DNA of 64,000 nt from positions 1-64,000 of IMG/VR virus record IMGVR_UViG_3300037333_000056, one strand, 5' to 3'. Origin of the DNA: a virus. Below, piece after piece: positions 8,710 through 50,418 of this stretch. Below the pieces are notes generated by a model. It saw only the letters and a list, made by a program, of their open reading frames with translations, did no database searches and had not been told where the DNA came from. The position numbers and the translations under genes were made by a program. Every line of letters starts with the position of its first letter. Position 1 is the first letter of the stretch.

Positions 8710-8718
8710 ATTATACCA
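8710..8718 (-). promoter_or_regulatory. Extended -10 promoter for the reverse-strand pair
   Basis: On the minus strand TGGTATAAT occurs about 37 bases before the start at 8673, a TGn-extended -10 box. No clear -35 is visible. The same nonamer is found at 35636-35644. Confidence 0.4.
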
Positions 8719-8740
8719 AACTTAAACAAAAAGGACACAC

Positions 8741-9550: not shown

Positions 9551-9582
9551 TTAGATACACAAAAATTATAAGGAGAAAATAC

Positions 9583-10109: not shown

Positions 10110-10281
10110 AGAATTTATTGATATAAATAACTATATGGATGGGTTTGAAAATATGGATAATGAACATTATGTTAATCATAAAGCATGTAGATACTGTAGC
10201 GATGAGAAAGACAAGACAATTACGATGATACAAAATAATATTACACCATACAAGAAGGACGATTGGATTAAAAATGGTTAA
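10084..10281 (+). CDS. MxKQ-family small protein
   Basis: A 65-residue protein starting MKKQS and ending TPYKKDDWIKNG. The last twelve residues are identical to those of the next gene because both lie in a 41-base direct repeat. Two Cys near residues 39-42 (CRYC). Confidence 0.6.
   Translation: MKKQSCLTKEFIDINNYMDGFENMDNEHYVNHKACRYCSDEKDKTITMIQNNITPYKKDDWIKNG
10240..10280 (+). repeat. 41-base direct repeat, copy 1
   Basis: Identical to 10421-10461. It covers the last codons of one MxKQ gene, its stop, and the overlapping ATG of the next, so the repeat is a gene-junction cassette. The copies are 181 bases apart. Confidence 0.95.
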
Positions 10282-10462
10282 ACAGTTATCAACATCAAAA
10301 GATGCAGTTGAAATAAGTACTTTTGGAGTAGACAATGAAATGTCAAGAAACACAAGACATAAGGCAGTATATTATATTGGTGATAAAGAAGGTAAATTAT
10401 TAACAATGACAAAACCATTAATTACACCATACAAGAAGGACGATTGGATTAAAAATGGTTAG
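10274..10462 (+). CDS. MxKQ-family small protein
   Basis: A 62-residue protein starting MVKQL, starting inside the end of the previous gene (eight-base overlap) and ending in the same TPYKKDDWIKNG. The middle part has diverged strongly, apart from HKA and YxxD positions, which indicates duplication followed by rapid change. Confidence 0.6.
   Translation: MVKQLSTSKDAVEISTFGVDNEMSRNTRHKAVYYIGDKEGKLLTMTKPLITPYKKDDWIKNG
10421..10461 (+). repeat. 41-base direct repeat, copy 2
   Basis: Second exact copy of the junction cassette at 10240-10280. It ends within the start codons of the next member (MVRQL). Confidence 0.95.
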
Positions 10463-10658
10463 GCAATTAAATGTAAGCAATAAACATCTAGTAGTTAATA
10501 TAGAACTAGAAGATAGTGGACATATCTACTCAAAGCACAAATACTTAAGCTCTATATTTGAAAAACAAACACTTATGGAATTTGTTTTATGTATCAGTAA
10601 CAAGCTATGCTCTAATAAATATTGGAAAAAAGATATGGAACAAACGCAGAAGCACTAA
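10455..10658 (+). CDS. MxKQ-family small protein
   Basis: A 67-residue protein starting MVRQL, with a conservative Arg for Lys, and a NKYWKKDMEQ tail. The region after the W-x-K motif overlaps a possible upstream extension of the helicase frame. Confidence 0.55.
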   Translation: MVRQLNVSNKHLVVNIELEDSGHIYSKHKYLSSIFEKQTLMEFVLCISNKLCSNKYWKKDMEQTQKH

Positions 10659-10705
10659 CAACTACATATTATAATATTGTAGCAAACACAATAAAGGAGC
10701 AACGT

Positions 10706-12676
10706 ATGGATTTTAAATTAAGGCAGTATCAAGTAGAAGCTATTGATGCTATAGAGGGGAACATATTGTTCGGAGAAAAGAATATTATACTAAAGGCAAC
10801 TACTTCATTTGGAAAGTCGTCAGTAATAGCAGGACTATGTGAACGCTTCAACGACAAAAGTATTTCTATTATTGTTAATATTGAGCCTCTAATAGACCAA
10901 ATAGCTGTTTTCTTGAAACTACTTAATATAGACTATTCAATACTAAAGGCAGGGCGAGAATCTGAATTTAGAGCGTCATCAAGAGTTCATCTTATCATGT
11001 CTCAAACATTATATGCAAGACTTGATAAGCTAGATATAAAATCTGATATATGTATCATAGATGAACGTCATATAGAGTATGATACAAAAAGAACCGGAGA
11101 TGTGCTTAAACACATAACTCCTGACGTAATCATAGGAATGACTGCTACACCGTATAATCAAGCTGGTTTTGCACTAGCAAATGCAGAAATAGTTGAGACA
11201 GCAGATACTAACTGGTTAACAGAACAAGGGTATTTGTCTAAAGTAAACTACTATGTACCAAGATGGGCAGAAAAAGTTGACTATTCATCTGTTAGCAAGT
11301 CTGGCGTAGACTACAATCTATCATCACTAGACTCAATCATCAATTCAAAATCAAACATTAGCAAAATTGTAAAAGCAATGAACGATATGAAATGCAAAGA
11401 TAAGAAAACGCTAGTGTTTTGTACGACAATAGACCAATGCAACTTAATTGCAGAAGCACTTAGTAAGGACGGATATAGTGCGAAGGCTTATCATTCAGAT
11501 AATTCAAAAAATGAAAATGAATATATACTTGATTCATTCAAGAACAATACTAAATTATTTGCTAATACAAGCGAAAATAAGACACTTTTTGATGAAAACG
11601 AACTATCTGTAGATAAAGACGCAGTTAAGTGCTTAATATCCGTTTCTAAGCTAACTACAGGGTTCTCTGTAAACGATATTGATATTGGAGTATCGCTTAG
11701 ACCTAGTAAGGTGCGTTCGCTTGTAGAGCAGATTATAGGTAGAGTTAGAAGAACGTCAAATTCTTTAGATGAGCTACTATCTAAGTATTCAAATGTTAAA
11801 GGCAAAAAAATTGCATTTGTATGCTCTGCGTACAATGAGAAAACAAAAATTAAAACTCAACTAAAGCAACTTAAAGCATCACATATAGATGTATTTGAAT
11901 ACAAATCAGAACCAGATGAATACGATATAGTAGAGTGCAATGTTAGACCAAATAAGGAATATGGTGAATATTTAGATCTAGCACAAAATATTAACACGCA
12001 TGGTTTTCCTGAAGAAACTTACTATGCACCTGAATTTACTGGCTTTCACACTCAAGATAAGCAAAACCTTGAGGAAGCAACTAAAGACCTAAAAATGGAC
12101 CATCTAATGGCTACAATAGGGTCAGATAAACCAGAGTGCATAACGAGAGATGGATACAATATAAAAATAGAGCAGATAAAGAAAGATTCAACAAAATTAA
12201 CTAATCTAACGATTAGACAACTATCAAACAAACTTGAAGTTGAGATGGATCCTACTACGATTATATCTGTAACTTGTGTGCTGTTTGACAAGATGCATTG
12301 CTCTGGAGACTATGTAGATAAATTTGGGAAACAAGTACGTGGATATACTACTAATAAAGGAAAAGACGTAGTTAATTTTCTTAATCCTAGAAGCATTGGC
12401 TGGATAGCTGAAGACTGGGTAAAACAATTAGAACTAGAAAATGCATTCTATAAGCGAAAATATATTAAGGCACTAAGAACCAGATGCAAAACTCTATTGC
12501 TGCAGAAAGGTTCAATATATGCAATAAAGTATTTCTTACAATTTCTACTAGAAGGAGATGCAGAAGAAAAGAACAGGAACAATAGTGAGGAAGAAGAGGC
12601 TTCATATTCTGTTCAAATAGAAGACAGCAGTGGAAACATAGAAGTACATATAGACGATTGTGATATTCCATTTTAA
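10706..12676 (+). CDS. SF2 DNA helicase
   Basis: A 656-residue superfamily 2 helicase/translocase. Motifs in order: TTSFGKS (I), DERH (II, a DExH-type box), MTATP (III), TTGFSVNDID (V) and QIIGRVRR (VI). The start at 10706 is chosen for AAAGGAG five bases upstream; the frame is open back to 10622, but that part overlaps the previous gene. The C-terminal 250 residues are unlike common helicases and end in an acidic tail. The closest functional class is UvsW/RecG-like repair or recombination helicases of phages. Its exact substrate is unknown. Confidence 0.85.
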   Translation: MDFKLRQYQVEAIDAIEGNILFGEKNIILKATTSFGKSSVIAGLCERFNDKSISIIVNIEPLIDQIAVFLKLLNIDYSILKAGRESEFRASSRVHLIMSQTLYARLDKLDIKSDICIIDERHIEYDTKRTGDVLKHITPDVIIGMTATPYNQAGFALANAEIVETADTNWLTEQGYLSKVNYYVPRWAEKVDYSSVSKSGVDYNLSSLDSIINSKSNISKIVKAMNDMKCKDKKTLVFCTTIDQCNLIAEALSKDGYSAKAYHSDNSKNENEYILDSFKNNTKLFANTSENKTLFDENELSVDKDAVKCLISVSKLTTGFSVNDIDIGVSLRPSKVRSLVEQIIGRVRRTSNSLDELLSKYSNVKGKKIAFVCSAYNEKTKIKTQLKQLKASHIDVFEYKSEPDEYDIVECNVRPNKEYGEYLDLAQNINTHGFPEETYYAPEFTGFHTQDKQNLEEATKDLKMDHLMATIGSDKPECITRDGYNIKIEQIKKDSTKLTNLTIRQLSNKLEVEMDPTTIISVTCVLFDKMHCSGDYVDKFGKQVRGYTTNKGKDVVNFLNPRSIGWIAEDWVKQLELENAFYKRKYIKALRTRCKTLLLQKGSIYAIKYFLQFLLEGDAEEKNRNNSEEEEASYSVQIEDSSGNIEVHIDDCDIPF

Positions 12677-12695
12677 TATACAAAGGAAAGATACT

Positions 12696-12893
12696 ATGGT
12701 AAAACAATTTAGAGTTGTAGGCGATAGAACAAAAATGGGATACTACAATCCAGCACAGATTATGTCTTATCTGCCTATAAAATACACATTCAGCACGGTA
12801 TTGAATAGTGGCTCAAGTTCAAGAAAAATACTGTATATGGATAACAATAATGCTGATGAAAAAACTTTCTGGGAAAAGACGAAATATGTTTAA
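12696..12893 (+). CDS. MxKQ-family small protein
   Basis: A 65-residue protein starting MVKQF (AAAGGAAAG upstream) and ending DEKTFWEKTKYV. It shares KMGYYxP near the N-terminus and ILYM...DEKxFWxK near the C-terminus with the next gene, a clear paralogue pair. Confidence 0.7.
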   Translation: MVKQFRVVGDRTKMGYYNPAQIMSYLPIKYTFSTVLNSGSSSRKILYMDNNNADEKTFWEKTKYV

Positions 12894-13140
12894 GCAATCT
12901 AAAATGATAAGTAATGGAGCTAAAATGGGATACTACTATCCATCTATCGATCCATTTTGTGATTCATCTACTGCTGTAGACTATATGAACATAAAATTTA
13001 TATACAATAAAGGTATAAGATTTGAAGATGGAGGAATATTATATATGGAAAGTGAATGCATATCGTCTACTCACCGTACTGACGAAAAAGCTTTTTGGAT
13101 AAAGAGTAGGAAACACACTATCAATAAAGAATATGTGTAG
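12886..13140 (+). CDS. MxKQ-family small protein
   Basis: An 84-residue protein from ATG 12886 starting MFKQS, overlapping the previous stop by eight bases. It has KMGYYYP, GGILYM and DEKAFWIK in the same order as its neighbour, with a longer insert. These conserved N- and C-terminal blocks around a variable middle define the family best. Confidence 0.7.
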   Translation: MFKQSKMISNGAKMGYYYPSIDPFCDSSTAVDYMNIKFIYNKGIRFEDGGILYMESECISSTHRTDEKAFWIKSRKHTINKEYV

Positions 13141-13201
13141 CATAGACCGTATTATTTAAGCTAAAACAGTTAAATTAATATGCGTATGAAAACATAAACT
13201 G

Positions 13202-13307
13202 CTTCTGCGGTTGTGGAGGAGTAGACGTGACACGCATTTTCGAGCAAGCCGAAGGCTGTCGCAGAAAAGCGTATTGCGAAAGCTACGATAGCCACATAAC
13301 GGAGAAG
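13202..13307 (+). ncRNA. Candidate structured RNA, nested helices
   Basis: The 195 bases between two family genes hold a GC-richer block with nested pairing. CTTCTGCGGTTGTGG (13202-13216) pairs with CCACATAACGGAGAAG (13292-13307) with small bulges. Inside, GTAG pairs with CTAC, ACGCATTTTC (13232-13241) with GAAAAGCGT (13264-13272), and AGCC-GAA-GGCT (13247-13257) forms the apex. No frame with a ribosome binding site covers it. The strand is inferred from flanking genes. Confidence 0.55.
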
Positions 13308-13335
13308 AACAATTGAGCACCAAGAAAGGAATAAT

Positions 13336-13545
13336 ATGTTTAAGCAAATATCTCTAGGGAATGACAAAACAACAATGGGATCCATTTTTAAACGTAAATA
13401 TATATCAATACAATTCAACAATCAGGATAGGCATATTTATGAAGAAAAATTTAGATTAATAGACTTATTCCATACAACAATTGTAAGTTATGGAACAATA
13501 AGTTATTTATTCGATATAAACATATTCCAGAAAGAGATAGCATGA
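13336..13545 (+). CDS. MxKQ-family small protein
   Basis: A 69-residue protein starting MFKQI after AAAGGAATA. It shares a T-T-M-G position with the K-M-G of the two preceding members, but lacks the W-x-K tail. It overlaps the next gene in ATGA. Confidence 0.55.
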   Translation: MFKQISLGNDKTTMGSIFKRKYISIQFNNQDRHIYEEKFRLIDLFHTTIVSYGTISYLFDINIFQKEIA

Positions 13546-13736
13546 GAAAACAACTAATGATTATTGATGGGTATTGCAACATTGAAGGAATGAATCCTAA
13601 GACTTTAGTATCTACTTTCTCTCAAAGGAGAACGCCAATAAAACTCGATAATCTGCTGTACATGTACAGGCTTATGATAATTCAAGAAAAGATGGTTATG
13701 ATAGGGAAACTTACTATATTTAATAAAGATCAATAG
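13542..13736 (+). CDS. MxKQ-family small protein
   Basis: A 64-residue basic protein starting MRKQL, coupled to the previous gene by a four-base overlap. There is no W-x-K tail. It is followed by a single AGAACCAG motif in reverse (13740) and a noncoding region. Confidence 0.5.
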   Translation: MRKQLMIIDGYCNIEGMNPKTLVSTFSQRRTPIKLDNLLYMYRLMIIQEKMVMIGKLTIFNKDQ

Positions 13737-13757
13737 TTTCTGGTTCTCATTTGTTAT

Positions 13758-13881
13758 GTAACTATTTGCAGTATCCTTCGGTAGCTGCTGTTTCTCGTTT
13801 TTGAGCTATGGCTATCGCCATACCCTCTGGGCACGCTCTTCAACTGCGATACAGGTCAACCTTGAATACTACAATAGTTAC
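13758..13881 (+). ncRNA. Candidate structured RNA closed by a 9-bp helix
   Basis: GTAACTATT (13758-13766) pairs perfectly with AATAGTTAC (13873-13881). The 106 bases between include TATGGC-TATC-GCCATA, CTC-GTTTTT-GAG and a TTCAA/TTGAA pair, and are clearly GC-richer than the flanks. The remaining noncoding bases, 13882-14232, are very AT-rich. They include overlapping ATATATAG/CTATATAT-type pairs and a CACCATGG/TACCATAG-type region before the next gene, in which I see no gene. Confidence 0.5.
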
Positions 13882-14232
13882 GGACTAATTTTTATAGTAT
13901 TATCTATATAATATATATAGCTCTATATAGAGAAAGTTATAAAAAATAGTACCTAAAATGCTCATAAAGCACGGTGTACTGGGAGTTTGATAAGTTTTAA
14001 ATAATACTCACAGTATGAATATAGAAGTTGAGTAATATATGCAGACTGTGAGTACTTTTATAGCTACAAATTGTATTCAGTATTGAGTATAATTTTAAGC
14101 TATATGTAATATTAAATTGTATATAATTAGGGATATTAAAAGACACACCATGGTTTTTAGGTTGGCTCCTACCATAGTGCGAAGAAAGTTTTTAATTATG
14201 AACACATCATACAAACACAATGGGAACATAAC

Positions 14233-15111
14233 ATGACTGAATTATACAATGAACACAATGAAATAGAGCTTATCTCAGAGACAACTTTAACATCAGATAG
14301 CGGACTTGCTATAGCAAAAATAGAATCAACAACTTTACAAAGAATAAAAAAAGGAAAAAGAGCAATGATGACACCAATGATAGCAAAATACGCAGTTAAA
14401 GGAGTAATAAATAGCAACAAATTTATAGGAGAAAAAGGGCTTAAAGAAATAATGAATAAGTATGATAGCTCCGCATTTAACGTTTTTATAGAGGAAACTA
14501 TATGTGGACTAATGAATGATTACGGATGTATAATTTCTGATAGTTCAGTTACGAAACTCATATATAGTAAAGCTAAAGTATCTAAAAGCTCTTTTGATAG
14601 ATACATGAAGCTATTACGGGACAATAATGTGATTCGTAAGGTGAATAATAAGCTTATAGTGATTAACCCATATCAGCTATACAAAAATTGTACGATTTCA
14701 GGAGAACATCTATGGCAACTTCAGGCTAACTGGGAACTAGAGAAGGTAATGACACACTGGTTCGAGATAGATGACGAAGCAAGACTTGATGTGCTACGAT
14801 CTAAAGCAGAGCTTGATAAGGCTTGGGCAGAAGAAAAGCTAGAAAAGATTAAGAAGAGTAATGCAGAGGTTGCATCTATCTATGAAGAACCGGAGAAGTA
14901 TGCTACAGCTATAGAGGCTTTTACAGATTATAATGTAGAGAAAGGATTAATAGTTACAACTTTTGCAGACTATCTTAGTGATGACACTGGTTCTAGACAC
15001 TTTAGATCGTGGTATTTAAGCGAAAAAAATACTACTCATAGGCCAAAGCTACAATATGACTATAAAGACCGTAGAGCGTATGCTGATGCGTTTATAGAGA
15101 TATCGAAATGA
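14233..15111 (+). CDS. RepL-like winged-helix protein
   Basis: A 292-residue protein. Residues about 75-160 look like a winged-helix domain: a VSKSSFDRYMKLLRDNNVIRK recognition-helix region, then KLIVINPYQLYKN, which matches the xxINPxxxxKG wing ending of RepL-type replication and transcription proteins. The C-terminal half is charged with a helical EKLEKIKKSN stretch. It might start replication or regulate the neighbouring small genes. It is preceded by a 490-base noncoding region and overlaps the next family gene in ATGA. Confidence 0.5.
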   Translation: MTELYNEHNEIELISETTLTSDSGLAIAKIESTTLQRIKKGKRAMMTPMIAKYAVKGVINSNKFIGEKGLKEIMNKYDSSAFNVFIEETICGLMNDYGCIISDSSVTKLIYSKAKVSKSSFDRYMKLLRDNNVIRKVNNKLIVINPYQLYKNCTISGEHLWQLQANWELEKVMTHWFEIDDEARLDVLRSKAELDKAWAEEKLEKIKKSNAEVASIYEEPEKYATAIEAFTDYNVEKGLIVTTFADYLSDDTGSRHFRSWYLSEKNTTHRPKLQYDYKDRRAYADAFIEISK

Positions 15112-38038: not shown

Positions 38039-41000
38039 TTATCCTACTATCTGAGGGAAAAATGCATCGCTACTTAGTAGTGGGGCATTTATAAAATCTA
38101 ACCCATTTCCATCAAAATGCTTTCCAAACATCTTAACAATTATGTTGCTATCAATTATTGTATCTGGATGGATATCAATAAACTGTTGAATACTTGTACC
38201 AAATGCAACTCCAGCTGGATTAGCCTTTACAGTAGCAAGTATTACTTTCTGAATCCTCATCCAGAATGATGGGAATAGCAGAACACCATAATCACTTAGT
38301 GCTTTTACTTCTTTAGGCATATTTATTTTGTAATCAACAAATGATTCAAGAGTAATTTTTATTGCATCATGCTCGCTTTTGCCTTGAGCAATAAGAGTGT
38401 CTAGTAATATTTTCCTTGACACTATATCTATCGATTGCACAGCAAACGATCCAAATCTTACCATTGCACTATCTGGCGAGGCAATAAACTCTGATATGTA
38501 TTTTGCCATATCTCCAGTCTTCTTGTTGTGCTCTATTCTATCTCCAGACTCAATTAGATTATCACCAAAAGATTGCAATGCTTTAAAGTTTTTAGCACTT
38601 TTGCCAGCAAACTGCAACAGCGTCTCTACGTTCATGCTTTGGTGACCACTTTGAGATAGGGCTTTAATAGCTTTTGCAAGACCGTTATTTTTACCATTGC
38701 TGTCTTTCAAGAACTTATTTAATAATGATTCTATGTCGTTTTGTAGACCAGAAATAACAGACTCATCTTTATTCATTACTTCAACTGATATTGATTGCAT
38801 CATTCCAGTATTTAACATTATTGCCATAGGATGTGTTTTTATTGACTCTTTGACGCGTTTAAGTTTGTTATCAACATCTTCACCAGAATACTTTTTTATC
38901 TCAAGCTCTAGTTGTTTTAGTCTTAGCTTTTCAAGTGATTTCATATCTACTATAGACTCTTTTATTAGCCTTGGAATTTCTTGAACTGGAACACCATACG
39001 CTAGTAATATTGCAACGTTTGATGTTGTGTCTCCAAATATTTTTGGAATATTTGTGATTACCCAATGTATTTTGGTTAACTTTACTGCTTGTCTTATAGC
39101 AAATGCTGCCTTTTTGAGCGAATCATTATTGCTAAACAACACAGGATCGTTAAACCCTATAGCAATGTCTGAAAAATCCTTTCTTACTAGATGAAGATGC
39201 TCGTTAATACCACCTACGGTTGTGACATTTGATACTACTTTATATCTGTCTCCTATTAGTTTATGTGTCTCAAGAACCTCTTTTGCAGTTGAAGAATCTG
39301 GCAAGCTTAAAAACAATGGAATATCTTTTGTATCAATATCTGCAAGGTCTTCTTCAAGCTTATCTATTGACGAACTTGTCTTTAGATATTTTGTCATAGT
39401 TTGACTAAGCAATTCATCTCTTGCAGCTTGAGTATTATGTATTTCAATTGACCTACCATACGACCTTACAATAGCATCAGCAGGGTTCTTGTTTAGTCCG
39501 AGAAGATCTAATTGATCAGGCGTAAGAACTATTTTTTGAAATGAGCCTTTTAAAGTTTTGATGCTGTATACATTATTCATGCCTTTCAGCTCTTTATCTT
39601 TTGGAACAATTATGTCTTGGTTGAGGTAGTGGACACTTGTTCCTGCTCCTTCTTGGCTTGTTTGTTCGACTCTGTCTCTGTATACTATTCCGTAGTCTTT
39701 TGATGTAGGCTTTTGAAGTATTCTCCATCCAGATTCTTTTGTGTAATCATTATGGTTAAGATCTTTCTTTGTTACAATAGCAAATTCTTTTGGAACAGTA
39801 AATGATTCATATAACAGGTTCTCTTTTCCAAGCATTTTATCTTTAGTTGTAGCATACATCTTATTGTGTGAGCCAAACATTCCAGCGGATAGTGTCATTA
39901 ATTCTGATGCAAATTTTTTATTCTTTCTTAATAGCTTAAATGCATTCTCGTACTCTCTTACAGTATTTCCTTCTTTATTTATACGTGTATTCTCTTTTAT
40001 GCTATATAGTGCAAGAAGTGCTCCTAGATTTAGACGCTCTGCACTATCTTGTGGATGCATTTGTGCAATATTGTATGCGTCAGTGGTTCTTGATGGAGTT
40101 CTTTTGCCAGCGTATATCTGTGCCATTGCTCTTATTCTGTGTATCTTGCTTGTATTACCTATTTTAGACTCATATTCTTTTATGTATTCATCAATTGCTA
40201 TTGTTATATCTCCTGCACGCTTATTTATAAGATTACTCATTATCTCGTTAGAACCAATAAGGTAGAAAATTGGAGATCTTGCAAAGGTATAGTATATGTT
40301 ATCCTTGTCTCTGTCTGACATATGCTCCATAAGTTTATTTAGTTTAGATATTTTATTATCTTCGAATTGCTTACGTTTTTGTGCACTTGTCATTGTGAGC
40401 GTAATTGCACTGTTTAAGCTATCAAATGTTCCTAGCCTACCCCAAGTATCAAGATATCCTTTTAGTGACTGTAGCCAGTCAGCTGAACCCCAATAGTCTT
40501 CTGCTCTATCAAATTGCATTTTATATACGTCAAAATTTTGATACATAAACTCATGAGCTTTTGCAACTCCAGATTCAGTCTTTGGACCTATAGTGCTTGT
40601 ATATATATCTCCAAGGCCATTTGATATACTCTTGTTTAACATAAATAGAGATTTATCAAGGATTGAATCAATATCAACCTTATGTTCTTTACCTTTATAT
40701 ACATAGCTCATTGTTTCTTTTAGAGATTCTTCAGCTTTCTGTTTTGTATCTTTTGGCTGAGAATCAGTACTAGAACCAGCGTGCACGGTATTTGTTATGT
40801 CGTCTTCTTTTTTGTTTTTATCTTGTTTTTTTGCCTTGCCACTACTAGATGAACTCTTGTCATACTTTTCATTATATGTTCCGTACACTACATCAACAGT
40901 AGCGTCAAGTGTGTATTCTTTCCCGTCTAAATGAGTTATTTTATTATAGTTTTCTCTTGCATGCTTTCCTGTCATAAAAGGTTTTATTCCATTGTCTTTA

Positions 41001-44000
41001 TTGACATAATCTGTTATATGAAGAGGCGTTCCATCAGGTTGCCTAGAATACACTGTTCCATTTGCCTCAACAAGAACAGTTCTGTATTCCATATCATCAT
41101 TCTTAAAGTGCCCGATAACAGTTACTTTAGCATTATCACCTTCCTTGCCAGGAATTTCTGGGCCATAACTATACTCGCCCTCAGGATTAAAATTAAATGT
41201 TATATGCTTTCCATCACTAAGCTTGAACTGACTAAATAATTTAATCTTGTCTCCATTTATAAACAGTGCATTAAATTTATTGCTGATCTTTTTGCGGATA
41301 TTTACACCTTTACCTGCGTTGTTAAATCTTACTCCGGATGCCATAACTCCATGTATTGCAAGCTTAAGTATGTCTGCATCTACAATTTCTTTTGAACTAA
41401 TCTCGTTGAATTGCTTATTCGTTACTTTTGATATTCTACCTTTTATATTGTTCCATAGTTTGATAACATTATTTTTAAGAGTTGTAGATGTAATGTTTCC
41501 ACTCTGCTTATTTATATGTTTTATTGCAGCATATGTCAATTTTGCCGTAGAGTCCTCTGCTACCATTACTGCTTCAAATTCAGCAGTCCTATGCAGTTCG
41601 TCTTCTATCTTAAGCACGTCCTGTATACGTTTAGGAAGCTTATTTATTACTTTTTCGTCAAGTCTTGAAAGTATCTCTAGTGTCTTTTTTATATATTTTG
41701 CATTTTGATCAGATTTTCCACTCGCAGAATATAAGTACCCAACAGTAGAATAGTGAACTATCTCGTGTGCTATTGCAGTTTCAATATCTAGGCCAGAACC
41801 AGACAGTGATTCTTTTGTACCTATAGTAATTCCATGTACGCTAGGGTCATACGAGAATTCAGAACCAGATGTGAGAGACTTAACATTTTCACTTTTTATG
41901 AATTCAGATATTATTTGATTATCTTTATACTTATTTATGTCAAGTGTTTTGTTCTCTGCTCTTTTTACTAATTCTCCTATAATATTAGATAGGACTTCAA
42001 CATCGTGCGATGCATCATGTGCCTTACCATCTTTTTTTACACCTAATAGACTTTCTACTGCAGATTGCGTCCTATCAAACTTTGTTCTGTTGTTACCTTT
42101 GTTGTCTACAAATTCAACGTCATCTTCATTTGAGTCTCTTAGCTCGCTAACAGCAAGCAATTTTGCATCAAATATTTCAAATTTGTTTGATAGAAGTTCA
42201 TCTACGCCAGAATATGATGACAATATATCGAAGTCAGACTTTATACCATTGTATGCAATTATTGGAGTCTTTCCTCCATCAACGCTTAATGATTCAAGAG
42301 CGTCTCGTATTGATTTTGCAACACTATCCTCGTTGTATTCTTTTGCTGAGTCAGGTATGTCTCGCTTATATTCACTGTACTCTTTCATATCAAGTATAGC
42401 ATCGAAGTCATTGCTTGACGGCTTATATTCGAACGTTACAGGATCTCCATCTTGTACAATTGTGCCATTTTCATATTTATATTTTCTTGCGTACAGCTGT
42501 AGTAGTTCTTTTGATTTTCCGCCTTTAGCATGGTCATATCGTCTTTCGTCGCTAGGGTCAAATGTATTTTCAATATCTATTACAACAACAGGTTCTCCAC
42601 TAGAGACAATATCAATTATCTTGTTAGCGTGATCTGTTACAAACTCTGATATTTTATCTCCATCTATAAATGGTCTATCTTTATGTCCAGTAGGAGTTAT
42701 TGCATATGTATCAAGATATTCACTGCTTATTTCGTCTTTCCATGACGATGTATCTGCATCATTGTTGTTGCCGTTGTTATTATTATCATTTTCTGTAACG
42801 TCTATATAAGTGTCTTTTTTATCTGATTCTATATCATTATTATCCAACCTATAGTTTTCTTTGCCTGCAATATTGTTTCCATTAAACCCAAACAATAAGT
42901 GGTTCTCAGACATACCAGCATTATATACATACTTCTTGATGAACTTTCTTTTTTTATCTATTTTTTCACTGACAGAATCAAGATTGTTTGTGTTGTCTAT
43001 AAATATTGACTTCTTTATTTGCTCTGCAGAAATAATATTTTCATCATGTCCAACATCTGCTATCTGATCCTGAAATGAATCATATAGCAGAACCAGTTGC
43101 TCGGATATATCATATTCATAGTTTATTTCAGATGTAAGTTTTTGATACTCAACATCATATATGTCACCATACACTGGTACACTATGTATAGCATCATATA
43201 TTCCAGCTGTACCATTCTGAAGTACATTTAGCAGGTCATCACGATCATTCTCAAGTGACCTGATGTACTCATTGTCAGATCCATCAATCCTGTTTAGTTC
43301 ACGTACCTCTAGGTTTATATCAAGTATCTTTTGCTTAATTATGCGTCTTGTGTTTCTGTGTGCTAACTTTTCTAGTCCTGAATCTATGCTATGTATACCA
43401 GATACTGCTGGAATTAATCCATTTGATAGCTCCTTCTTTATAGGAACATATCCAGCTCTGTCAGATTCTACAAGAACCTGTCGCTTAGAAGTTATTGGCA
43501 TTCCGTACTGCTTAATCATTTTCATGTACCATGCTCTATACTCAGGAGTACCTTTTGCAGTAATCTTTAAGTTATCTTCACTATGTGTTTTGCCATATAA
43601 GATATGGTCAGGATTACGTTCTACTCCATTGTCATCAGTATTACTTTCTGTTATTATCATCCATGTTCCTGCAGGAATTATCATCCTAGGGAACCTGTCG
43701 GCAGCATCATGATAGTGTTTACTTGCGTCAGAATAGAATGTGTCTATATTTCTGTAATATGAGCTTAGATCATTCTTGTATGCAGTAGTAGCTTGACCAA
43801 GCGTGCTATCAAGTAGCCCAGCTAGCCTATCAACTAACCCAACACCTTCCTGTGCAAAGTATGCTTGAATTGCAAGATAAACTCCAGGTATAGCAGCAAA
43901 ATCTAATTCAGTATGCTTAGATAGATCTAAAACATTTTCGTACTTATGAAGTTCTGCAGATTTATACAGATCTTCGTCAACTTCTTTTATTGATGAAACA

Positions 44001-46441
44001 AGTAAGTTTAGTGCTGAAACCCTATCGTTAGTGCTTCCACTTGTTGCGGCAGTATCTAAGTACTCAAATACATCATTAGTCATGTCTCTTGATGCAGACG
44101 CTCTTGTCCCAGCAGCCCCTGCTTGATAGTTTTTAACCATAGTAACTGGCTTAAGCATGTCGCGTATAGATCCAAATATTCCAAGACTTGTAAACTTAGA
44201 CATTACAGTAAAAGTTGATTCATCGGTATCTTCTTCTTGAGAGTTTGCATGTTCATCGTCTACTGCTTTTCTTAGTATTGCATATGCATCTGCAAGATAT
44301 TCATCTTCACTAAGATCTTTTCCAGAATCCTTTGCAATCTTCATTTTGATAAGTAAATCTTTTATCATCTCATCAGCCACATCATTAGAGCCTAGTGCTT
44401 GATATAATGTCAATATTACACCAGAAGCAGTTGCATCAGACTTGGTTCTGTAATGAGTGGTTATTTTGTCAGATCCTGATTCTTTTGCACTTCTAATATC
44501 AGATATTGCAGATAAAGAGTCTATTGCTGACCAAACGCTCTTGGTTTTGAATTTAAACTTAGTTGCTTTTCCGGAAACCATTATTTCATTTTTAGCAAGT
44601 ATCTTCATTAGCGTTGACATTGCTGACACTCTTTGATCACTAGTTAACTCTTTATTCTGAGTCTTTCTAAATAGCTTAACAAGATTATCTAATGGCTTAT
44701 TTATTCCTTCGTTTTCTATAGCTTGATACCGCTTTATCTCTTCTTGTATTTCACTTGATCCTATGAATTCGTCGACTATAGAACCGAACACCTTGTAATA
44801 TGCAGATGTTCCAACTTTAAAGCTTGACTCTCCGCCAGAAACTATTGACCTAGACATTTTGTCTGATATTTCATTAAGTACATTTGATGTTGGCATTGAA
44901 CGACTATTTCTTACTATCTTATGCTTCTTTACATATTTTTTCCCATCTTTGAACCTGTCGAATGTAATAAGTAGATTTGCTAGTGGAGTCTCTTTAGAGA
45001 TTGACATGCCGACCTCATTATCTACTCTTTCCTGCGTCAACGCACCATCATATGAACCAAAAATCTTATTCTTAAGTGCTACATCTTTTATTCCAATAGA
45101 TTCATACACTTTATTTAGAGAGACCTTATCATCTATTCCAGAATCATTATTAAACACATTGCTCATACTTGATAAAAGGTCGTTGAATATTGGGTTAATC
45201 ATATTTTCTGTTTTTGAAAGACCAACCTTGTCTTCAGTAAATATTTTTGCATACTCATCTGGAACTCCAAGATTTTGCTTTCCATCATTGCCAGATCCTT
45301 GCTCTACAGTAAATAATTGATTTTTTAATTCAGTAGGAACTCTATATTTTTCATTTGGAGGGATTGTATCGTCTGCGGCATCAAGTTCTTCTTTTTTTAT
45401 TAGCTTCTCAATATAGCTATTGTTTGTTGGTGCTTCCATATTTTGAGTTGTTGTCATCTTATTTATTGCTTGTGATGCGTTATACGTTGCCTGCAAAACT
45501 GGATATGCAGTTATTTTTTTAGTATTAAAAGAACCAGTGTTTAGAATCTCTGCAACAGTATTCTTGTCTTCAGGTTTTGTTGATTTTCCTAATAGCTTTG
45601 TTGTGTTTATATATATAGCATCTGCACCGTCAATAATTGGTTCTACACTTATATTGCCTCCAAACATATCTTTAAAGTTATTATTTAGTGTTTGTCCATT
45701 CTCTATTACTTTAACTAACCCATTACCGTATTCATCTACTGCAACCTCTGTTAGTGCATTAACTGCAGATTTTCCTATTGATATATACGCTTCATTAGCA
45801 GATATTGTGTCTGTCTCAAACTTGATTCCAGATGCTATTGCTATCTGCCTACCTATTGCTCCATACAGATTAATTGAACTAAGAATTGTTGTTCCATACT
45901 CAGATTTTAGAGTATCTTTTACAGACAACTTATCTTCTGGAGACAAGTTGAGATTCTGTAATATATGATTTTCTGCTTTTCCAGCATTTGCTATTGCATT
46001 AAATGCTATACCTACAGCACGCATAGTTGAACCTATAGTTCTTATCTCCTTATTTAGGAGCTCTTCATTTTCATCTTTTGATAACTTATCATTATACTTA
46101 TATCCTACTGGATCTACTCCATCTATATCTAGTATTCCGTCGAATAATATATTTGCTGAGGTGTTTCCTATCTTTGTTCTTGACTTGTTTATTGCACTAT
46201 GTATAGCAGATTTTATTTTTGGAATCTTTACTTCGCTATCAAGCTTAGACATAATCTCTTCTTTAATTGAAGCATCAATATTTGACATCATGTATACATA
46301 GTCTTCTGCTTTAATAGACTGAATATTCCAAGCAATAGGAGTGCTGCTTCCTGAACTATTATCCAATACTGCAGATTTCATTCTTATTTTGCCAGTCTTA
46401 GTATTTAATAATATCTTTGCATACTCTTTACATTTTCTCAT
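38039..46441 (-). CDS. Virion RNA polymerase fused to exonuclease and metallopeptidase domains
   Basis: A 2800-residue protein at the N4 gp50 position. Polymerase motifs: the TxxGR-like loop R511-N-S-R514; motif A D669 in KSDATASG; motif B R760-x3-K764-x3-M768-x3-Y772, with the spacing of T7 R627/K631/M635/Y639; motif C H1017-S-I-D1020. The A-to-B distance (95 residues) equals that of T7. After the polymerase comes a DnaQ-type exonuclease (D1289-x-E1291, FDI block, H1475-x4-D1480) and an HEXXH metallopeptidase (H1559-E1560-H1563). The last 400 residues are the late-ejection type domain of N4-like polymerases. The protein is packaged and injected to transcribe early genes. The extra domains are not known in N4 gp50. 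Confidence 0.85.
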   Translation of the reverse strand: MRKCKEYAKILLNTKTGKIRMKSAVLDNSSGSSTPIAWNIQSIKAEDYVYMMSNIDASIKEEIMSKLDSEVKIPKIKSAIHSAINKSRTKIGNTSANILFDGILDIDGVDPVGYKYNDKLSKDENEELLNKEIRTIGSTMRAVGIAFNAIANAGKAENHILQNLNLSPEDKLSVKDTLKSEYGTTILSSINLYGAIGRQIAIASGIKFETDTISANEAYISIGKSAVNALTEVAVDEYGNGLVKVIENGQTLNNNFKDMFGGNISVEPIIDGADAIYINTTKLLGKSTKPEDKNTVAEILNTGSFNTKKITAYPVLQATYNASQAINKMTTTQNMEAPTNNSYIEKLIKKEELDAADDTIPPNEKYRVPTELKNQLFTVEQGSGNDGKQNLGVPDEYAKIFTEDKVGLSKTENMINPIFNDLLSSMSNVFNNDSGIDDKVSLNKVYESIGIKDVALKNKIFGSYDGALTQERVDNEVGMSISKETPLANLLITFDRFKDGKKYVKKHKIVRNSRSMPTSNVLNEISDKMSRSIVSGGESSFKVGTSAYYKVFGSIVDEFIGSSEIQEEIKRYQAIENEGINKPLDNLVKLFRKTQNKELTSDQRVSAMSTLMKILAKNEIMVSGKATKFKFKTKSVWSAIDSLSAISDIRSAKESGSDKITTHYRTKSDATASGVILTLYQALGSNDVADEMIKDLLIKMKIAKDSGKDLSEDEYLADAYAILRKAVDDEHANSQEEDTDESTFTVMSKFTSLGIFGSIRDMLKPVTMVKNYQAGAAGTRASASRDMTNDVFEYLDTAATSGSTNDRVSALNLLVSSIKEVDEDLYKSAELHKYENVLDLSKHTELDFAAIPGVYLAIQAYFAQEGVGLVDRLAGLLDSTLGQATTAYKNDLSSYYRNIDTFYSDASKHYHDAADRFPRMIIPAGTWMIITESNTDDNGVERNPDHILYGKTHSEDNLKITAKGTPEYRAWYMKMIKQYGMPITSKRQVLVESDRAGYVPIKKELSNGLIPAVSGIHSIDSGLEKLAHRNTRRIIKQKILDINLEVRELNRIDGSDNEYIRSLENDRDDLLNVLQNGTAGIYDAIHSVPVYGDIYDVEYQKLTSEINYEYDISEQLVLLYDSFQDQIADVGHDENIISAEQIKKSIFIDNTNNLDSVSEKIDKKRKFIKKYVYNAGMSENHLLFGFNGNNIAGKENYRLDNNDIESDKKDTYIDVTENDNNNNGNNNDADTSSWKDEISSEYLDTYAITPTGHKDRPFIDGDKISEFVTDHANKIIDIVSSGEPVVVIDIENTFDPSDERRYDHAKGGKSKELLQLYARKYKYENGTIVQDGDPVTFEYKPSSNDFDAILDMKEYSEYKRDIPDSAKEYNEDSVAKSIRDALESLSVDGGKTPIIAYNGIKSDFDILSSYSGVDELLSNKFEIFDAKLLAVSELRDSNEDDVEFVDNKGNNRTKFDRTQSAVESLLGVKKDGKAHDASHDVEVLSNIIGELVKRAENKTLDINKYKDNQIISEFIKSENVKSLTSGSEFSYDPSVHGITIGTKESLSGSGLDIETAIAHEIVHYSTVGYLYSASGKSDQNAKYIKKTLEILSRLDEKVINKLPKRIQDVLKIEDELHRTAEFEAVMVAEDSTAKLTYAAIKHINKQSGNITSTTLKNNVIKLWNNIKGRISKVTNKQFNEISSKEIVDADILKLAIHGVMASGVRFNNAGKGVNIRKKISNKFNALFINGDKIKLFSQFKLSDGKHITFNFNPEGEYSYGPEIPGKEGDNAKVTVIGHFKNDDMEYRTVLVEANGTVYSRQPDGTPLHITDYVNKDNGIKPFMTGKHARENYNKITHLDGKEYTLDATVDVVYGTYNEKYDKSSSSSGKAKKQDKNKKEDDITNTVHAGSSTDSQPKDTKQKAEESLKETMSYVYKGKEHKVDIDSILDKSLFMLNKSISNGLGDIYTSTIGPKTESGVAKAHEFMYQNFDVYKMQFDRAEDYWGSADWLQSLKGYLDTWGRLGTFDSLNSAITLTMTSAQKRKQFEDNKISKLNKLMEHMSDRDKDNIYYTFARSPIFYLIGSNEIMSNLINKRAGDITIAIDEYIKEYESKIGNTSKIHRIRAMAQIYAGKRTPSRTTDAYNIAQMHPQDSAERLNLGALLALYSIKENTRINKEGNTVREYENAFKLLRKNKKFASELMTLSAGMFGSHNKMYATTKDKMLGKENLLYESFTVPKEFAIVTKKDLNHNDYTKESGWRILQKPTSKDYGIVYRDRVEQTSQEGAGTSVHYLNQDIIVPKDKELKGMNNVYSIKTLKGSFQKIVLTPDQLDLLGLNKNPADAIVRSYGRSIEIHNTQAARDELLSQTMTKYLKTSSSIDKLEEDLADIDTKDIPLFLSLPDSSTAKEVLETHKLIGDRYKVVSNVTTVGGINEHLHLVRKDFSDIAIGFNDPVLFSNNDSLKKAAFAIRQAVKLTKIHWVITNIPKIFGDTTSNVAILLAYGVPVQEIPRLIKESIVDMKSLEKLRLKQLELEIKKYSGEDVDNKLKRVKESIKTHPMAIMLNTGMMQSISVEVMNKDESVISGLQNDIESLLNKFLKDSNGKNNGLAKAIKALSQSGHQSMNVETLLQFAGKSAKNFKALQSFGDNLIESGDRIEHNKKTGDMAKYISEFIASPDSAMVRFGSFAVQSIDIVSRKILLDTLIAQGKSEHDAIKITLESFVDYKINMPKEVKALSDYGVLLFPSFWMRIQKVILATVKANPAGVAFGTSIQQFIDIHPDTIIDSNIIVKMFGKHFDGNGLDFINAPLLSSDAFFPQIVG

Positions 46442-46452: not shown

Positions 46453-49400
46453 TTATCTTTTAATACAGAAGGTAAATTCTTCTTCAATCAATGCCTGTTT
46501 TTCACTATCTACAAGCTCTTCATCTGATATTATATCGTACAACTCTTCAATCTCGTATTCATTTTCAATCTTCTCATTGTGTGATAAATATACTATTTCA
46601 TCTTTGTTCTTTTTTATATTTTTAATCTCTTCTTTTAACTCACTCTTCCTTCTTATCTGTTCTATGTCTGCGTTTCCAGAGTTTATTTCCTGTTCGATTC
46701 CAAGCAACTCACTTTCAATTTTGTATTGCTTCTTATCTAGCTTTTTCATCTCTTTATCTATCTGTTTTGAGCTCTTGATTAGTTTAGTGTTTCTATATAT
46801 CTTTTTTTGCTTACTTGTTAGCTCAGTGTCTGTTGCATTAACGCCTCTAGCATTAATTACTCTTCTAAATATCTCAGCCTCTTTGCTTGTTATATTCTTT
46901 GCATCTTCTGCTACATTTATAAGATTATGAACAAATTCAACCTCTTGCTTTGATCTGATACTGCTCTTTTTTGCATACTTCAGTATAGTATTATATGCAT
47001 CAATATTATGGTTGTCCATAAGATTTGCATCTATGATTTCATCGTTTTTTGCAGATTTTAGTCCAGTTGCAGCTTCGCCTATTATTGCAACAAGTGTTTT
47101 GTTATATTCTTTTGGACTAGAGTTTTCATCTGAGTCAAAAACTATATTTAGACTGTTTATCGCAGACTTTAGGTTCTCAGCTTTCTTTTTGTCTAAACCA
47201 GAGCTGTTGTATAGTTTTTCGGCTACATCCTGCAGGAGACGCATTCCTTCATCTTGAGATGTTATTGCAAGGCTATATGAACGCATTATTCCCTGTATTT
47301 GGTCAATAACTTCGTTTGAATACTTATATGTACTCTTTTTTGCAACCTCTGATGATATATTTTTAAGAACGTCTCTCGTGTGTATATTCTTTGATGAGTT
47401 TATCCTAGTAGCAAAGTCTTCACCATCCTGCTCCTCAACTTTTGCTATTTCTATTCTAGCAGCATTTCTTGTTTTAAATACTGATTCTATTGCAGCTTTC
47501 ATTGCCTTACTTGCAGACGGATCATTAAAGGCTTCCTTTAGCGACTCATCTGAATATGTTCTTATATTCTTTTCTATCTTGCTTTTTGTCCCAAATGATC
47601 TCAATTTATGCATGAATGTTTTAGGGTCACTTTTGTACTCGTTTACATCTATCTTGTCATTACTAAACTCATTTACAGCAGAACCTGACGACAATGCTTC
47701 TTGTCTCTTTATCTTGTGTCCATCTAACCTATCAAGCCTTGCTTGAATTGTTTTTGCTAGAGTATCAGCTTTATTGTTTATAGCGTTTACTTGTTCATGA
47801 ATAATACCATTGTCTTTATCAAATACACTCTTTTCTACTGTGTATAGTGGACTATACTTGCTGTTTCCTACAGTATGTAATCTATCCATTGAATATATAT
47901 TTGTTCCAGGAAGAAATATTTCTCTACTAGTGCCACTGGTTCTTGTATTGTTGTCAATTTTATGCATATCTCTTTTTTGCTCTGGAGTAGCATTAAGATA
48001 CAGTTCCTTCATGTATGCCTGACGCTCATCTGTATCCATAAGACTTATTTTCTTCATAACTTCTTCATCAACAGCACCAGAATCACCAAGAATTTTGTCT
48101 TTAACACCTAAAGCGTTAAGAGTTTCAGTGGTTATAAAACTTGATTTTGAAAACTCTTCAGCAGCTTTTTCGTTATACTCATCATTATTGTCGAACACTG
48201 ACAGCATAGATTGCTCTCTTATTGCATTACCTAAGTCTCTTACTTCAGGTATTGCTGAGTCTGTTAGCTCTGATATGTCTTTTGCTTTTTTTGTTGCTTC
48301 TACTGCGTCTTTCATTATATGCCAGTTATCTTGCATAACTTCAATATCTTTAGACTCATTTGCAGCATAAAAATCAAAATCAGTTTGATCCATATTGTTA
48401 ACCATCGTATCGATGTTTGCTTTAGCTCTTTTTTCTGCAATTTTTGTATTAACAGATTTTGCAAAACTTTTAGCAAAAGACAAAGAGCTTGAAGGAGCTT
48501 TTGGCACCATATGCATCAATCCACCTGCTCCAGCACCAGCTATTGCAGCTTGAAACGCTTGGCTTCTATTCTTTTCGTCACGCAGAATGTCTTCGACATC
48601 CTTTTCGCTTATTCCATATTGTTGTCCAATTATCTCTCCCCATGTCTGAGTATACTCTTGAAATCCTTCCTCAGTCATACTTGCTAATGCAGAACCAGTT
48701 TTATTCAATAGCTTGTTTGTAAAAAATGGCTTTAGAGTATCTGGCATTTTGTTATATGACGACTTTAATATTGACGTTGTTGGCTTTGTTGCTTTTGACA
48801 ACTTACTTATTCCAGATACGTGATCAAAGGATAGCTTATCAAGAAGTGTAAAAGGCATCTCGAATGCATACAGTGCTGTAGCTTCTCCAACACTAACTGA
48901 TGGATCTTCTCCTGCTTCAAGCTTTGCCTTTATTCTCTCATCAAGTATTCTGTTTGTGTTTACTAAGTTTATTGTCTCGACTCCAGCACCTTTAGCAAGC
49001 AAGTTTAAGCCTTTAAGCATCTGCTCAGAGTCTTTGTATTTATTGTATACGCTCAACTCTCTAGGCTTAAACGATGCCTTTCCTACATCAACTATTTTCT
49101 TTATATCAGATGCTGATGCCCCAGCAGCCTTTGCTTTATTTACGTTTGCAACCAATCTTAGTGCTCCAGCTGTACCTGATACTTCACTTACGCCTATAGA
49201 CATACCAGCCATGTACGGTAACGACTCAGCTACGAATGACGGTGCAGACTGTGCAACACTCCATAGTCCAGATGCTATATCGCCACGATTAAACGCAGCT
49301 TCAGCTTCTACAACTTTACTTTGAGCGTAATGCCTATCATATCCAACAAATTTATCTGCCCATTCTTGCTGATAATCATTAAGAAGCGTGTTGTCATCAC

Positions 49401-50418
49401 CAGGAAGCAGGTCAAGCAATGCGTCTGCTGTTCCAGTTACGAGACCAAGTGCACCAGCCTGAAACGCGTCAACGAAGTTACTATCCCATGGACGACTCCT
49501 ACTGTGCTGATACATAAATTTTGATCGTTCAAGGTTTCTAGCATAATCTTCACTTGTTCCAGTATCTAATCCTAGAAGATCTTGATCATATAGTTCTGTT
49601 TTCCCTGCACCAAAATTTATACCTGATGCTTCATCTCTAGACTTTAGCCCATCAGGAGTCATAACCTTGTCAGATGACATTACTCTATGGTCAAGGTTCT
49701 CGTCAAGTGCATGCCATTTGTTTTCCCAATCGAGTGCTCCAGCAAATTTCTTTTCACCAATAAGTTCCCATCCGTCTTGAGTATATTGGTCTTTGTATCT
49801 TCCGTATGCACCATCATGTGCATATCCAAGCTTATAGATATATTTTGTGCTTCCATCGTCATTATATCCATCAAATTTCCTAAGGTTATATACTCCACCT
49901 TCAGCATCAGGATTATCTTCTGCATTATTATATTGATCTATTAAGTCTTGCCTTGTTAACCCTTTAGCTCCAATAAAGTCTTTATTCTGCATATTATACT
50001 TGCGACCATTTCGTTCAGCCTGAAATCCATCTCTATGGGTTATCCAGTCCCCTTGACCATAATCGAGTACATTTTCTGTTGCTTCTAAGAACCAGTCTAC
50101 GGCGTGTATCCCAGCATTAGCAACTTCTTTTGCTCTGAGCATTGAGTCGCTGTCATTAATGAGTGTTCCATCTTGCTCATACTTGAGATCAGCTTTTCTA
50201 TATATTGACTTACGCTTTAACTCTGCAGCTCTAGCAAGCTTTGTTCTCCTGTCAAATTGTGCATCTAATTGTTCTATGTCATATTCAGATTGAGCTATTG
50301 CTTGCTGTAAATATGGGTCAATTGAAACATCAGGCTCTTTGTCGTACGGAGTATACTCTCCAGTAGTATCATCTATATATCCTTGTGGTTCATCGTCGTA
50401 TATGTAGTCTTCTGCCAT
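46453..50418 (-). CDS. Large inner virion / ejection protein
   Basis: A 1321-residue protein next to the polymerase. The first 330 residues are polar. A block around 310-420 (DAFQAGALGLVTGTADALL, then SVAQSAPSFVAESLPYMAG) and another with EEGFQEYTQTWGEIIGQ match phage internal core proteins that are ejected with DNA and line the cell-envelope channel. The C-terminal 300 residues form long coiled coils. It is probably co-ejected with the polymerase, eleven bases separating the genes. Confidence 0.7.
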   Translation of the reverse strand: MAEDYIYDDEPQGYIDDTTGEYTPYDKEPDVSIDPYLQQAIAQSEYDIEQLDAQFDRRTKLARAAELKRKSIYRKADLKYEQDGTLINDSDSMLRAKEVANAGIHAVDWFLEATENVLDYGQGDWITHRDGFQAERNGRKYNMQNKDFIGAKGLTRQDLIDQYNNAEDNPDAEGGVYNLRKFDGYNDDGSTKYIYKLGYAHDGAYGRYKDQYTQDGWELIGEKKFAGALDWENKWHALDENLDHRVMSSDKVMTPDGLKSRDEASGINFGAGKTELYDQDLLGLDTGTSEDYARNLERSKFMYQHSRSRPWDSNFVDAFQAGALGLVTGTADALLDLLPGDDNTLLNDYQQEWADKFVGYDRHYAQSKVVEAEAAFNRGDIASGLWSVAQSAPSFVAESLPYMAGMSIGVSEVSGTAGALRLVANVNKAKAAGASASDIKKIVDVGKASFKPRELSVYNKYKDSEQMLKGLNLLAKGAGVETINLVNTNRILDERIKAKLEAGEDPSVSVGEATALYAFEMPFTLLDKLSFDHVSGISKLSKATKPTTSILKSSYNKMPDTLKPFFTNKLLNKTGSALASMTEEGFQEYTQTWGEIIGQQYGISEKDVEDILRDEKNRSQAFQAAIAGAGAGGLMHMVPKAPSSSLSFAKSFAKSVNTKIAEKRAKANIDTMVNNMDQTDFDFYAANESKDIEVMQDNWHIMKDAVEATKKAKDISELTDSAIPEVRDLGNAIREQSMLSVFDNNDEYNEKAAEEFSKSSFITTETLNALGVKDKILGDSGAVDEEVMKKISLMDTDERQAYMKELYLNATPEQKRDMHKIDNNTRTSGTSREIFLPGTNIYSMDRLHTVGNSKYSPLYTVEKSVFDKDNGIIHEQVNAINNKADTLAKTIQARLDRLDGHKIKRQEALSSGSAVNEFSNDKIDVNEYKSDPKTFMHKLRSFGTKSKIEKNIRTYSDESLKEAFNDPSASKAMKAAIESVFKTRNAARIEIAKVEEQDGEDFATRINSSKNIHTRDVLKNISSEVAKKSTYKYSNEVIDQIQGIMRSYSLAITSQDEGMRLLQDVAEKLYNSSGLDKKKAENLKSAINSLNIVFDSDENSSPKEYNKTLVAIIGEAATGLKSAKNDEIIDANLMDNHNIDAYNTILKYAKKSSIRSKQEVEFVHNLINVAEDAKNITSKEAEIFRRVINARGVNATDTELTSKQKKIYRNTKLIKSSKQIDKEMKKLDKKQYKIESELLGIEQEINSGNADIEQIRRKSELKEEIKNIKKNKDEIVYLSHNEKIENEYEIEELYDIISDEELVDSEKQALIEEEFTFCIKR

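What the first reader, a model, noticed from the sequence alone, without database searches (positions are those of the whole stretch)
38039..46441. Virion RNA polymerase carries a DnaQ exonuclease and a metallopeptidase in the same chain
The polymerase motifs (D669, R760/K764/M768/Y772, H1017/D1020) match the T7/N4 spacing. The same 2800-residue polypeptide then shows a DEDD exonuclease core (D1289/E1291, H1475/D1480) and HEIVH (1559-1563). Injected with the genome, it could transcribe, degrade or proofread nucleic acid, and cleave a host or virion protein at entry. Ordinary N4 gp50 is not known to have these domains.
Basis: partly seen in the sequence, partly recalled or inferred. Interest (0 to 1): 0.85.

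Follow-up and report, generated by a model that had tools for sequence, protein, structure and literature searches.

The report
Phage virion polymerase carrying an exonuclease
An N4-type phage carries a giant RNA polymerase of the kind that is injected into the host with the DNA, and in this lineage a 3'-5' nucleic-acid exonuclease domain has been inserted into the same chain next to a metallopeptidase domain that N4 itself also has; the exonuclease is the new part.

Summary
ORF 38039-46441 (-, 2800 aa) is an N4-type virion RNA polymerase: profile alignment to N4-like vRNAPs gives E=1.7e-40, and the predicted polymerase domain has N4 vRNAP crystal structures as its top PDB matches. Between polymerase and C-terminal domain lie (i) a DEDDh exonuclease, residues ~1260-1495, with all five catalytic residues (D1289, E1291, D1403, H1475, D1480) and an RNase T fold match (31 of 32 PDB hits at E<=1e-3), and (ii) a zincin-type metallopeptidase site (H1559, E1560, H1563, E1621). 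Corrections: motif C is D1083 (H1017/D1020 match T7 H784/D787). The metallopeptidase is not new: N4 gp50 has it (H2228/E2229/H2232/E2310), published in 2017 and 2025. The chain lacks N4's ~1000-aa N-terminal ejection domain, probably encoded by the upstream ORF (46453-50418). The exonuclease was found only here and in two IMG/VR relatives (42-44% identical in this domain; dN/dS 0.14 between those two), not in 16 other vRNAPs; no publication of it was found. Catalysis, injection and substrate are inferred. Verdict: new variant of a known kind.

The parts
38039..46441 (-). virion RNA polymerase gene, 2800 aa: RNAP - linker - DEDDh exonuclease - zincin - small domain - linker - C-terminal domain
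   Evidence: ORF; PHROG_2206 virion RNA polymerase E=5.4e-23; hhalign to N4-like vRNAPs E=1.7e-40
42872..45289 (-). single-subunit RNA polymerase domain, aa ~385-1190
   Evidence: AlphaFold2 model mean pLDDT 63.5, pTM 0.66; top Foldseek PDB hits 2po4, 3c2p, 3c46, 3c3l = N4 vRNAP, then T7 and mitochondrial RNAP
44435..44437 (-). motif A aspartate D669
   Evidence: aligned to N4 D1556 and T7 D537
44126..44164 (-). motif B R760...K764...M768...Y772
   Evidence: aligned to T7 R627/K631/M635/Y639 and N4 R1663/K1667/T1671/Y1675
43382..43393 (-). H1017-x-x-D1020, equivalent of T7 H784/D787 (not motif C)
   Evidence: hhalign to T7 RNAP
43193..43195 (-). motif C aspartate D1083
   Evidence: aligned to N4 D1948 and T7 D812; lies between two short strands of the model, residues 694-697 and 700-703
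42704..42850 (-). Asn/Asp-rich linker, aa 1198-1246
   Evidence: composition
41957..42664 (-). DEDDh 3'-5' exonuclease domain, aa ~1260-1495
   Evidence: AlphaFold2 core pLDDT ~60-83; Foldseek PDB: RNase T E=3.7e-5, prob 1.00, 31 of 32 hits at E<=1e-3
42569..42577 (-). exonuclease motif I, D1289 and E1291
   Evidence: maps to RNase T D23/E25; invariant in L002, L003
   Evidence: maps to RNase T D125; invariant
42002..42019 (-). exonuclease motif III, H1475 and D1480
   Evidence: maps to RNase T H181/D186; invariant
41402..41944 (-). zincin-like metallopeptidase domain, aa ~1500-1680, homologous to N4 gp50 C1
   Evidence: hhalign to N4-like MPTase domains E=7.3e-10, prob 96.5; fold not confirmed, pLDDT < 50 here
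41753..41767 (-). HEIVH, aa 1559-1563
   Evidence: aligned to N4 H2228-H2232
41579..41581 (-). third zinc ligand E1621 (in TAEFEAVMVAE)
   Evidence: aligned to N4 E2310; invariant in the joint alignment
40892..41374 (-). aa ~1690-1850, segment absent from L002/L003, function unknown
   Evidence: gap in A1; only a weak sub-threshold Tox-ART-HYD1 match overlapping its start
40685..40894 (-). polar low-complexity linker, aa 1850-1919
   Evidence: composition
38042..40684 (-). C-terminal domain (N4 C2 equivalent), aa ~1920-2800
   Evidence: PHROG_2206; HMM of this family's CTD finds N4 gp50 at E=5.3e-14
46453..50418 (-). 1321-aa ORF directly upstream: probable separately encoded N-terminal (ejection) domain of the vRNAP
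   Evidence: hhalign: this ORF family vs the upstream ORFs of PT11-type phages E=1.2e-12; those vs N4-like vRNAP N-termini E=1.6e-8; direct match alone is not significant

Best explanation
The gene encodes the ejected virion RNA polymerase of a deep-branching N4-like podovirus. By analogy with N4 it is packaged in the head, threaded through the tail as a string of small domains joined by flexible linkers, and transcribes early phage genes in the host (inferred from homology). In this lineage an RNase T-like DEDDh exonuclease has been inserted at the joint between the polymerase and the ancestral zincin domain, so each ejected polymerase brings a 3'-5' exonuclease into the cell before any phage gene is expressed (domain identity shown by motif, conservation and fold; activity inferred). 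Most likely it trims or degrades 3' ends of host or phage RNA, or single-stranded DNA ends, in the first minutes of infection, as an injected take-over or counter-defence activity. The zincin is the domain N4 gp50 also has; it may cut the chain between domains or cut a host protein (unproven even in N4).
For: Polymerase: hhalign E=1.7e-40 with all catalytic residues aligned; AF2 model's best PDB matches are N4 vRNAP. Gene order: late minus strand beside N4-like major head protein, gp54-like, gp55-like and gp57-like genes and portal further right. Exonuclease: five catalytic residues invariant; AF2 + Foldseek RNase T, prob 1.00; same position in two independent contigs 42-44% identical in this domain; dN/dS 0.14 between L002 and L003, so maintained by selection; flanking linkers. 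Zincin: and PMC5512222, PMC12633501. Injected polyvalent effectors attached to N4-type RNAPs (ART, PBECR nuclease, lysozyme) are a known theme, and the 13 other vRNAPs scanned include ART-PolyVal and PBECR3 hits.
Against: No biochemical data. Sequence similarity of the exonuclease to known DEDDh proteins is below detection: no RNase_T Pfam match and hhalign against three E. coli DEDDh proteins gives only E=0.039, with one unrelated control at 0.076. The AF2 alignment had 3 rows and only the core is confident. Packaging and injection of this protein are inferred. Substrate is a guess. N4 gp50 purified full length showed no degradation (PMC12633501), which argues against easy self-cleavage.
Confidence: 0.62

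Rival explanations
1. Transcript proofreading: the exonuclease trims misincorporated or backtracked 3' ends of RNA made by the attached polymerase, as coronavirus nsp14 ExoN (also DEDDh) does in trans and as the exonuclease domain of family A DNA polymerases does in cis.
For: The exonuclease follows the polymerase in the chain and is RNase T-like, a fold that acts on RNA and ssDNA 3' ends.
Against: A ~50-residue low-complexity linker separates the two; no other vRNAP of 16 checked has it, so the polymerase does not need it; early phage transcripts need little fidelity. No paper found reporting such a fusion.
Confidence: 0.15
2. Genome-end processing: the exonuclease resects or polishes the 3' ends of the entering linear phage DNA for circularisation, recombination or replication.
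For: The vRNAP enters with or ahead of the DNA (N4, PMC12633501). No family A DNA polymerase was found in the 73.7-kb record, so end processing may be unusual here.
Against: The record may be incomplete; N4-like phages manage without it and carry separate nucleases; no terminal-repeat data here.
Confidence: 0.15
3. The exonuclease-like domain is a structural bead or decoy with no catalysis.
For: vRNAP is a beads-on-a-string protein; detectable sequence similarity to active enzymes is weak.
Against: All five catalytic residues invariant between sequences 42-44% identical; purifying selection.
Confidence: 0.08

Closest known systems
Escherichia phage N4 gp50 (virion RNA polymerase), Schitoviridae
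   Same: T7-like RNAP domain with equivalent D/R/K/Y/D catalytic residues; zincin HExxH...E domain after the RNAP; homologous C-terminal domain; late operon position.
   Different: N4 has no exonuclease; N4's ~1000-aa N-terminal domain is fused, here probably a separate ORF; motif A is KSDATASG here rather than N4's EADGVTNG; 2800 versus 3500 aa.
vRNAPs of Alteromonas phages vB_AmeP_PT11-V19 and vB_AmeP-R22Y and six IMG/VR contigs (L020-L024, L026)
   Same: Nearest relatives outside the exonuclease lineage; SDATASG motif A; short chain (most ~1900-2090 aa); PT11, R22Y and several of the contigs have a large ORF directly upstream; orthologous HEIVH...AEFxAxMxAE zincin (no HExxH found in L048).
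   Different: No exonuclease.
RNase T (E. coli, P. aeruginosa), DEDDh exonucleases
   Same: Predicted fold and five catalytic residues in the same order.
   Different: Stand-alone dimer in bacteria; ~18% identity; here a domain inside an injected polymerase.
Polyvalent proteins of Iyer et al. 2017 (PMC5512222)
   Same: Giant injected multidomain protein with zincin hub; N4-type RNAPs fused to effector domains (ART, PBECR, lysozyme).
   Different: No DEDD exonuclease is described there fused to an RNAP ('DEDD' has no occurrence in the text).

Membership tests
N4-type virion RNA polymerase | single-subunit RNAP fold with motif A, B, C residues | tested here: met
N4-type virion RNA polymerase | homologous large C-terminal domain | tested here: met
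N4-type virion RNA polymerase | zincin (C1) domain between RNAP and CTD | tested here: met
N4-type virion RNA polymerase | fused ~1000-aa N-terminal domain | tested here: not met
   chain starts at N4 position ~1148; counterpart probably in the adjacent ORF. The compact PT11/R22Y vRNAPs share this, so I treat it as a variant
N4-type virion RNA polymerase | ExDGxxxG motif used by Zheng et al. 2023 to screen vRNAPs | tested here: not met
   KSDATASG at 667-674; such sequences would have been dropped from that survey (PMC10654107)
N4-type virion RNA polymerase | early promoters with a 3-nt-loop hairpin | tested here: inconclusive
   no recurrent hairpin with stem >= 6 and a 3-nt loop in the window, count as in shuffles; shorter stems not examined
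N4-type virion RNA polymerase | packaged in the virion and ejected | not testable with these tools
   needs virion proteomics
DEDDh exonuclease (RNase T/DnaQ superfamily) | D-x-E, D, H-x4-D catalytic residues in order | tested here: met
   D1289, E1291, D1403, H1475, D1480
DEDDh exonuclease (RNase T/DnaQ superfamily) | RNase H-like fold | tested here: met
   (predicted, moderate confidence)
DEDDh exonuclease (RNase T/DnaQ superfamily) | significant sequence-profile match | tested here: not met
   no Pfam RNase_T match; hhalign E=0.039
DEDDh exonuclease (RNase T/DnaQ superfamily) | 3'-5' exonuclease activity | not testable with these tools
   biochemistry
Polyvalent-protein zincin metallopeptidase | HExxH plus downstream Glu ligand | tested here: met
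   H1559, E1560, H1563, E1621
Polyvalent-protein zincin metallopeptidase | zincin fold | tested here: inconclusive
   region modelled from one sequence only, pLDDT < 50; homology to N4 C1 supports it
Polyvalent-protein zincin metallopeptidase | peptidase activity | not testable with these tools
   not shown for N4 either, in the papers read

The most novel reading that the evidence does not exclude
A single-subunit RNA polymerase with its own cis-acting DEDDh exonuclease that proofreads or trims its transcripts, delivered by injection: an RNA-polymerase counterpart of the polymerase-exonuclease arrangement of family A DNA polymerases.
Probability: 0.13. Interest if true: 0.85.

Novelty: new variant of a known kind. 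Interest (0 to 1): 0.5.

Why it matters
N4-type phages deliver a pre-made polymerase and attached domains before any phage gene is expressed. An exonuclease in that chain would mean nucleic-acid degradation or trimming is delivered at time zero, which bears on how such phages take over the cell or escape defences, and it adds a nuclease type not described in this setting. It also shows that the joint between polymerase and zincin is a site where domains are gained, and that short, split vRNAPs with a divergent motif A have been outside published surveys.

Tried and rejected
H1017/D1020 as motif C: rejected, D1083 fits T7 D812 and N4 D1948. Metallopeptidase as a novelty: rejected, ancestral. 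Chimeric assembly: rejected, same order in L002 and L003 from another metagenome. Exonuclease captured from the neighbouring 'exonuclease' gene of PT11 or N4 gp42: rejected, those are an AAA_24 protein and a weak PD-(D/E)XK match. Exonuclease in other phages: tblastn in 50,697 phage records found nothing credible; own HMM negative in 16 other vRNAPs; no RNase_T in 13. Several viral-contig scans with poorly chosen patterns returned only the two known relatives or nothing; the motif A DNA pattern found six more vRNAPs. Same pattern in bacterial genomes: three matches, not pursued, about the number expected by chance. N4-type hairpin promoters: none recurrent at stem >= 6.

Full report
WHAT IS THERE. 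The window is part of a 73,659-base IMG/VR virus record. ORF 38039-46441 on the minus strand encodes 2800 aa. PHROGs calls it virion RNA polymerase through its C-terminal part. Neighbouring minus-strand genes match N4-like major head protein, gp57-like and gp54/gp55-like families and, beyond the window, the portal; the major head protein is 37-38% identical to those of known N4-like phages at best. This is a deep branch of the N4-like phages.

POLYMERASE. A profile of the window protein with nine relatives aligns with N4-like vRNAPs at E=1.7e-40, over window residues 137-2794 and N4 residues 1148-3498. D669, R760, K764, Y772 and D1083 fall on N4 D1556, R1663, K1667, Y1675 and D1948, which by my own knowledge of the N4 mini-vRNAP numbering are the known catalytic residues D559, R666, K670, Y678, D951. 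Against T7 RNAP the overall score is weak (E=0.021) but all motif columns coincide: D537, R627, K631, M635, Y639, H784, D787, D812. An AlphaFold2 model of residues 385-1195 (9 sequences, mean pLDDT 63.5, pTM 0.66) has N4 vRNAP crystal structures as its four best PDB matches, with the isolated RNAP domain of the 2025 N4 structure also at E<=1e-3, followed by T7 and mitochondrial RNAPs.

EXONUCLEASE. Residues ~1260-1495 contain D1289, E1291, D1403, H1475, D1480, all invariant in L002 and L003, which are only 42-44% identical in this domain. Sequence searches alone do not find the family: no Pfam RNase_T, no PDB sequence match, and hhalign against E. coli RNase T, DnaQ and Orn aligned together gives E=0.039, although it places all five residues exactly on RNase T D23, E25, D125, H181, D186 (unrelated controls 0.076-0.89). 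The predicted structure decides: with three sequences the exonuclease core reaches pLDDT ~60-83 with a DnaQ-like order of strands and helices, and 31 of the 32 PDB matches at E<=1e-3 are RNase T (best E 3.7e-5, probability 1.00). In the viral library the nearest high-probability hits include a DEDDh protein of a siphovirus. dN/dS between L002 and L003 is 0.14 in this domain, against 0.10 in the polymerase and 0.09 in the CTD. The domain sits where N4 has the 22-residue linker between RNAP and C1 (residues 2102-2123 in PMC12633501), after a polar linker at 1198-1246.

METALLOPEPTIDASE. HExxH lies after the polymerase in N4 gp50 and in 15 of 16 other vRNAPs examined (L048 has none). The window's domain is homologous to N4's (hhalign E=7.3e-10) with both histidines, the catalytic glutamate and the downstream glutamate aligned (N4 H2228, E2229, H2232, E2310). 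It was described by Iyer et al. 2017 (PMC5512222) and seen in the 2025 cryo-EM work (PMC12633501). L002 and L003 have a different, unalignable HEYAHH domain in the same slot: the identity of the peptidase changes, its presence does not, which suggests that some peptidase function is selected. The fold of the window's copy was not confirmed.

SPLIT CHAIN. The window protein starts at the equivalent of N4 residue ~1148, so N4's N-terminal, membrane-associated domain (PMC12633501) is missing. The ORF ending 11 bases upstream (46453-50418, 1321 aa) belongs to a family of upstream ORFs; those of PT11-type phages match N4-like vRNAP N-termini at E=1.6e-8, and the window's ORF matches those at E=1.2e-12, though its direct match to N4 is not significant. 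The most likely reading is that this group encodes the ejection domain separately.

MECHANISM. Shown: gene, domains, catalytic residues, conservation, predicted folds. Inferred: packaging, ejection, enzymatic activity, substrate. The most likely use is as an injected 3'-5' exonuclease acting on RNA or single-stranded DNA 3' ends early in infection; proofreading and genome-end processing are rivals. Nothing here separates these.

NOVELTY. I found no report of a DEDD exonuclease in a vRNAP (only open-licence papers are held). Zheng et al. 2023 required ExDGxxxG and at least 2500 aa (PMC10654107); the window's motif A lacks that motif. The finding is a new domain combination in a known kind of protein.

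Noticed in passing
window 46453-50418 (-): 1321-aa ORF directly upstream of the vRNAP looks like the vRNAP N-terminal (ejection) domain encoded as a separate gene; the same arrangement in PT11, R22Y, L002, L003 and several IMG/VR contigs.
   Followed up: partly
L049 (G002 contig) 1040-14389: A related vRNAP is split into two ORFs exactly at the polymerase-zincin junction, with three ORFs (418, 607, 752 aa, no Pfam match) between them: the same junction that holds the exonuclease in the window.
   Followed up: partly
L002 aa ~1495-1684, L003 equivalent: A non-orthologous HEYAHH metallopeptidase occupies the slot of the ancestral zincin.
   Followed up: partly
G000 record, 73,659 bases: No family A DNA polymerase (PF00476) found, unlike PT11 and N4, although primase, helicases and ribonucleotide reductase are present; the record may be incomplete.
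   Followed up: partly
window 40892-41374 (-): vRNAP residues ~1690-1850 are absent from the two relatives and match no family; possibly another small domain.
   Followed up: no
window 2764-4206 (+): Nicotinamide phosphoribosyltransferase gene (phrog_448, E=2.3e-110), an NAD metabolism gene in the phage.
   Followed up: no
L048 (G001 contig) 3520-9180: The only vRNAP of those examined in which no HExxH was found.
   Followed up: no
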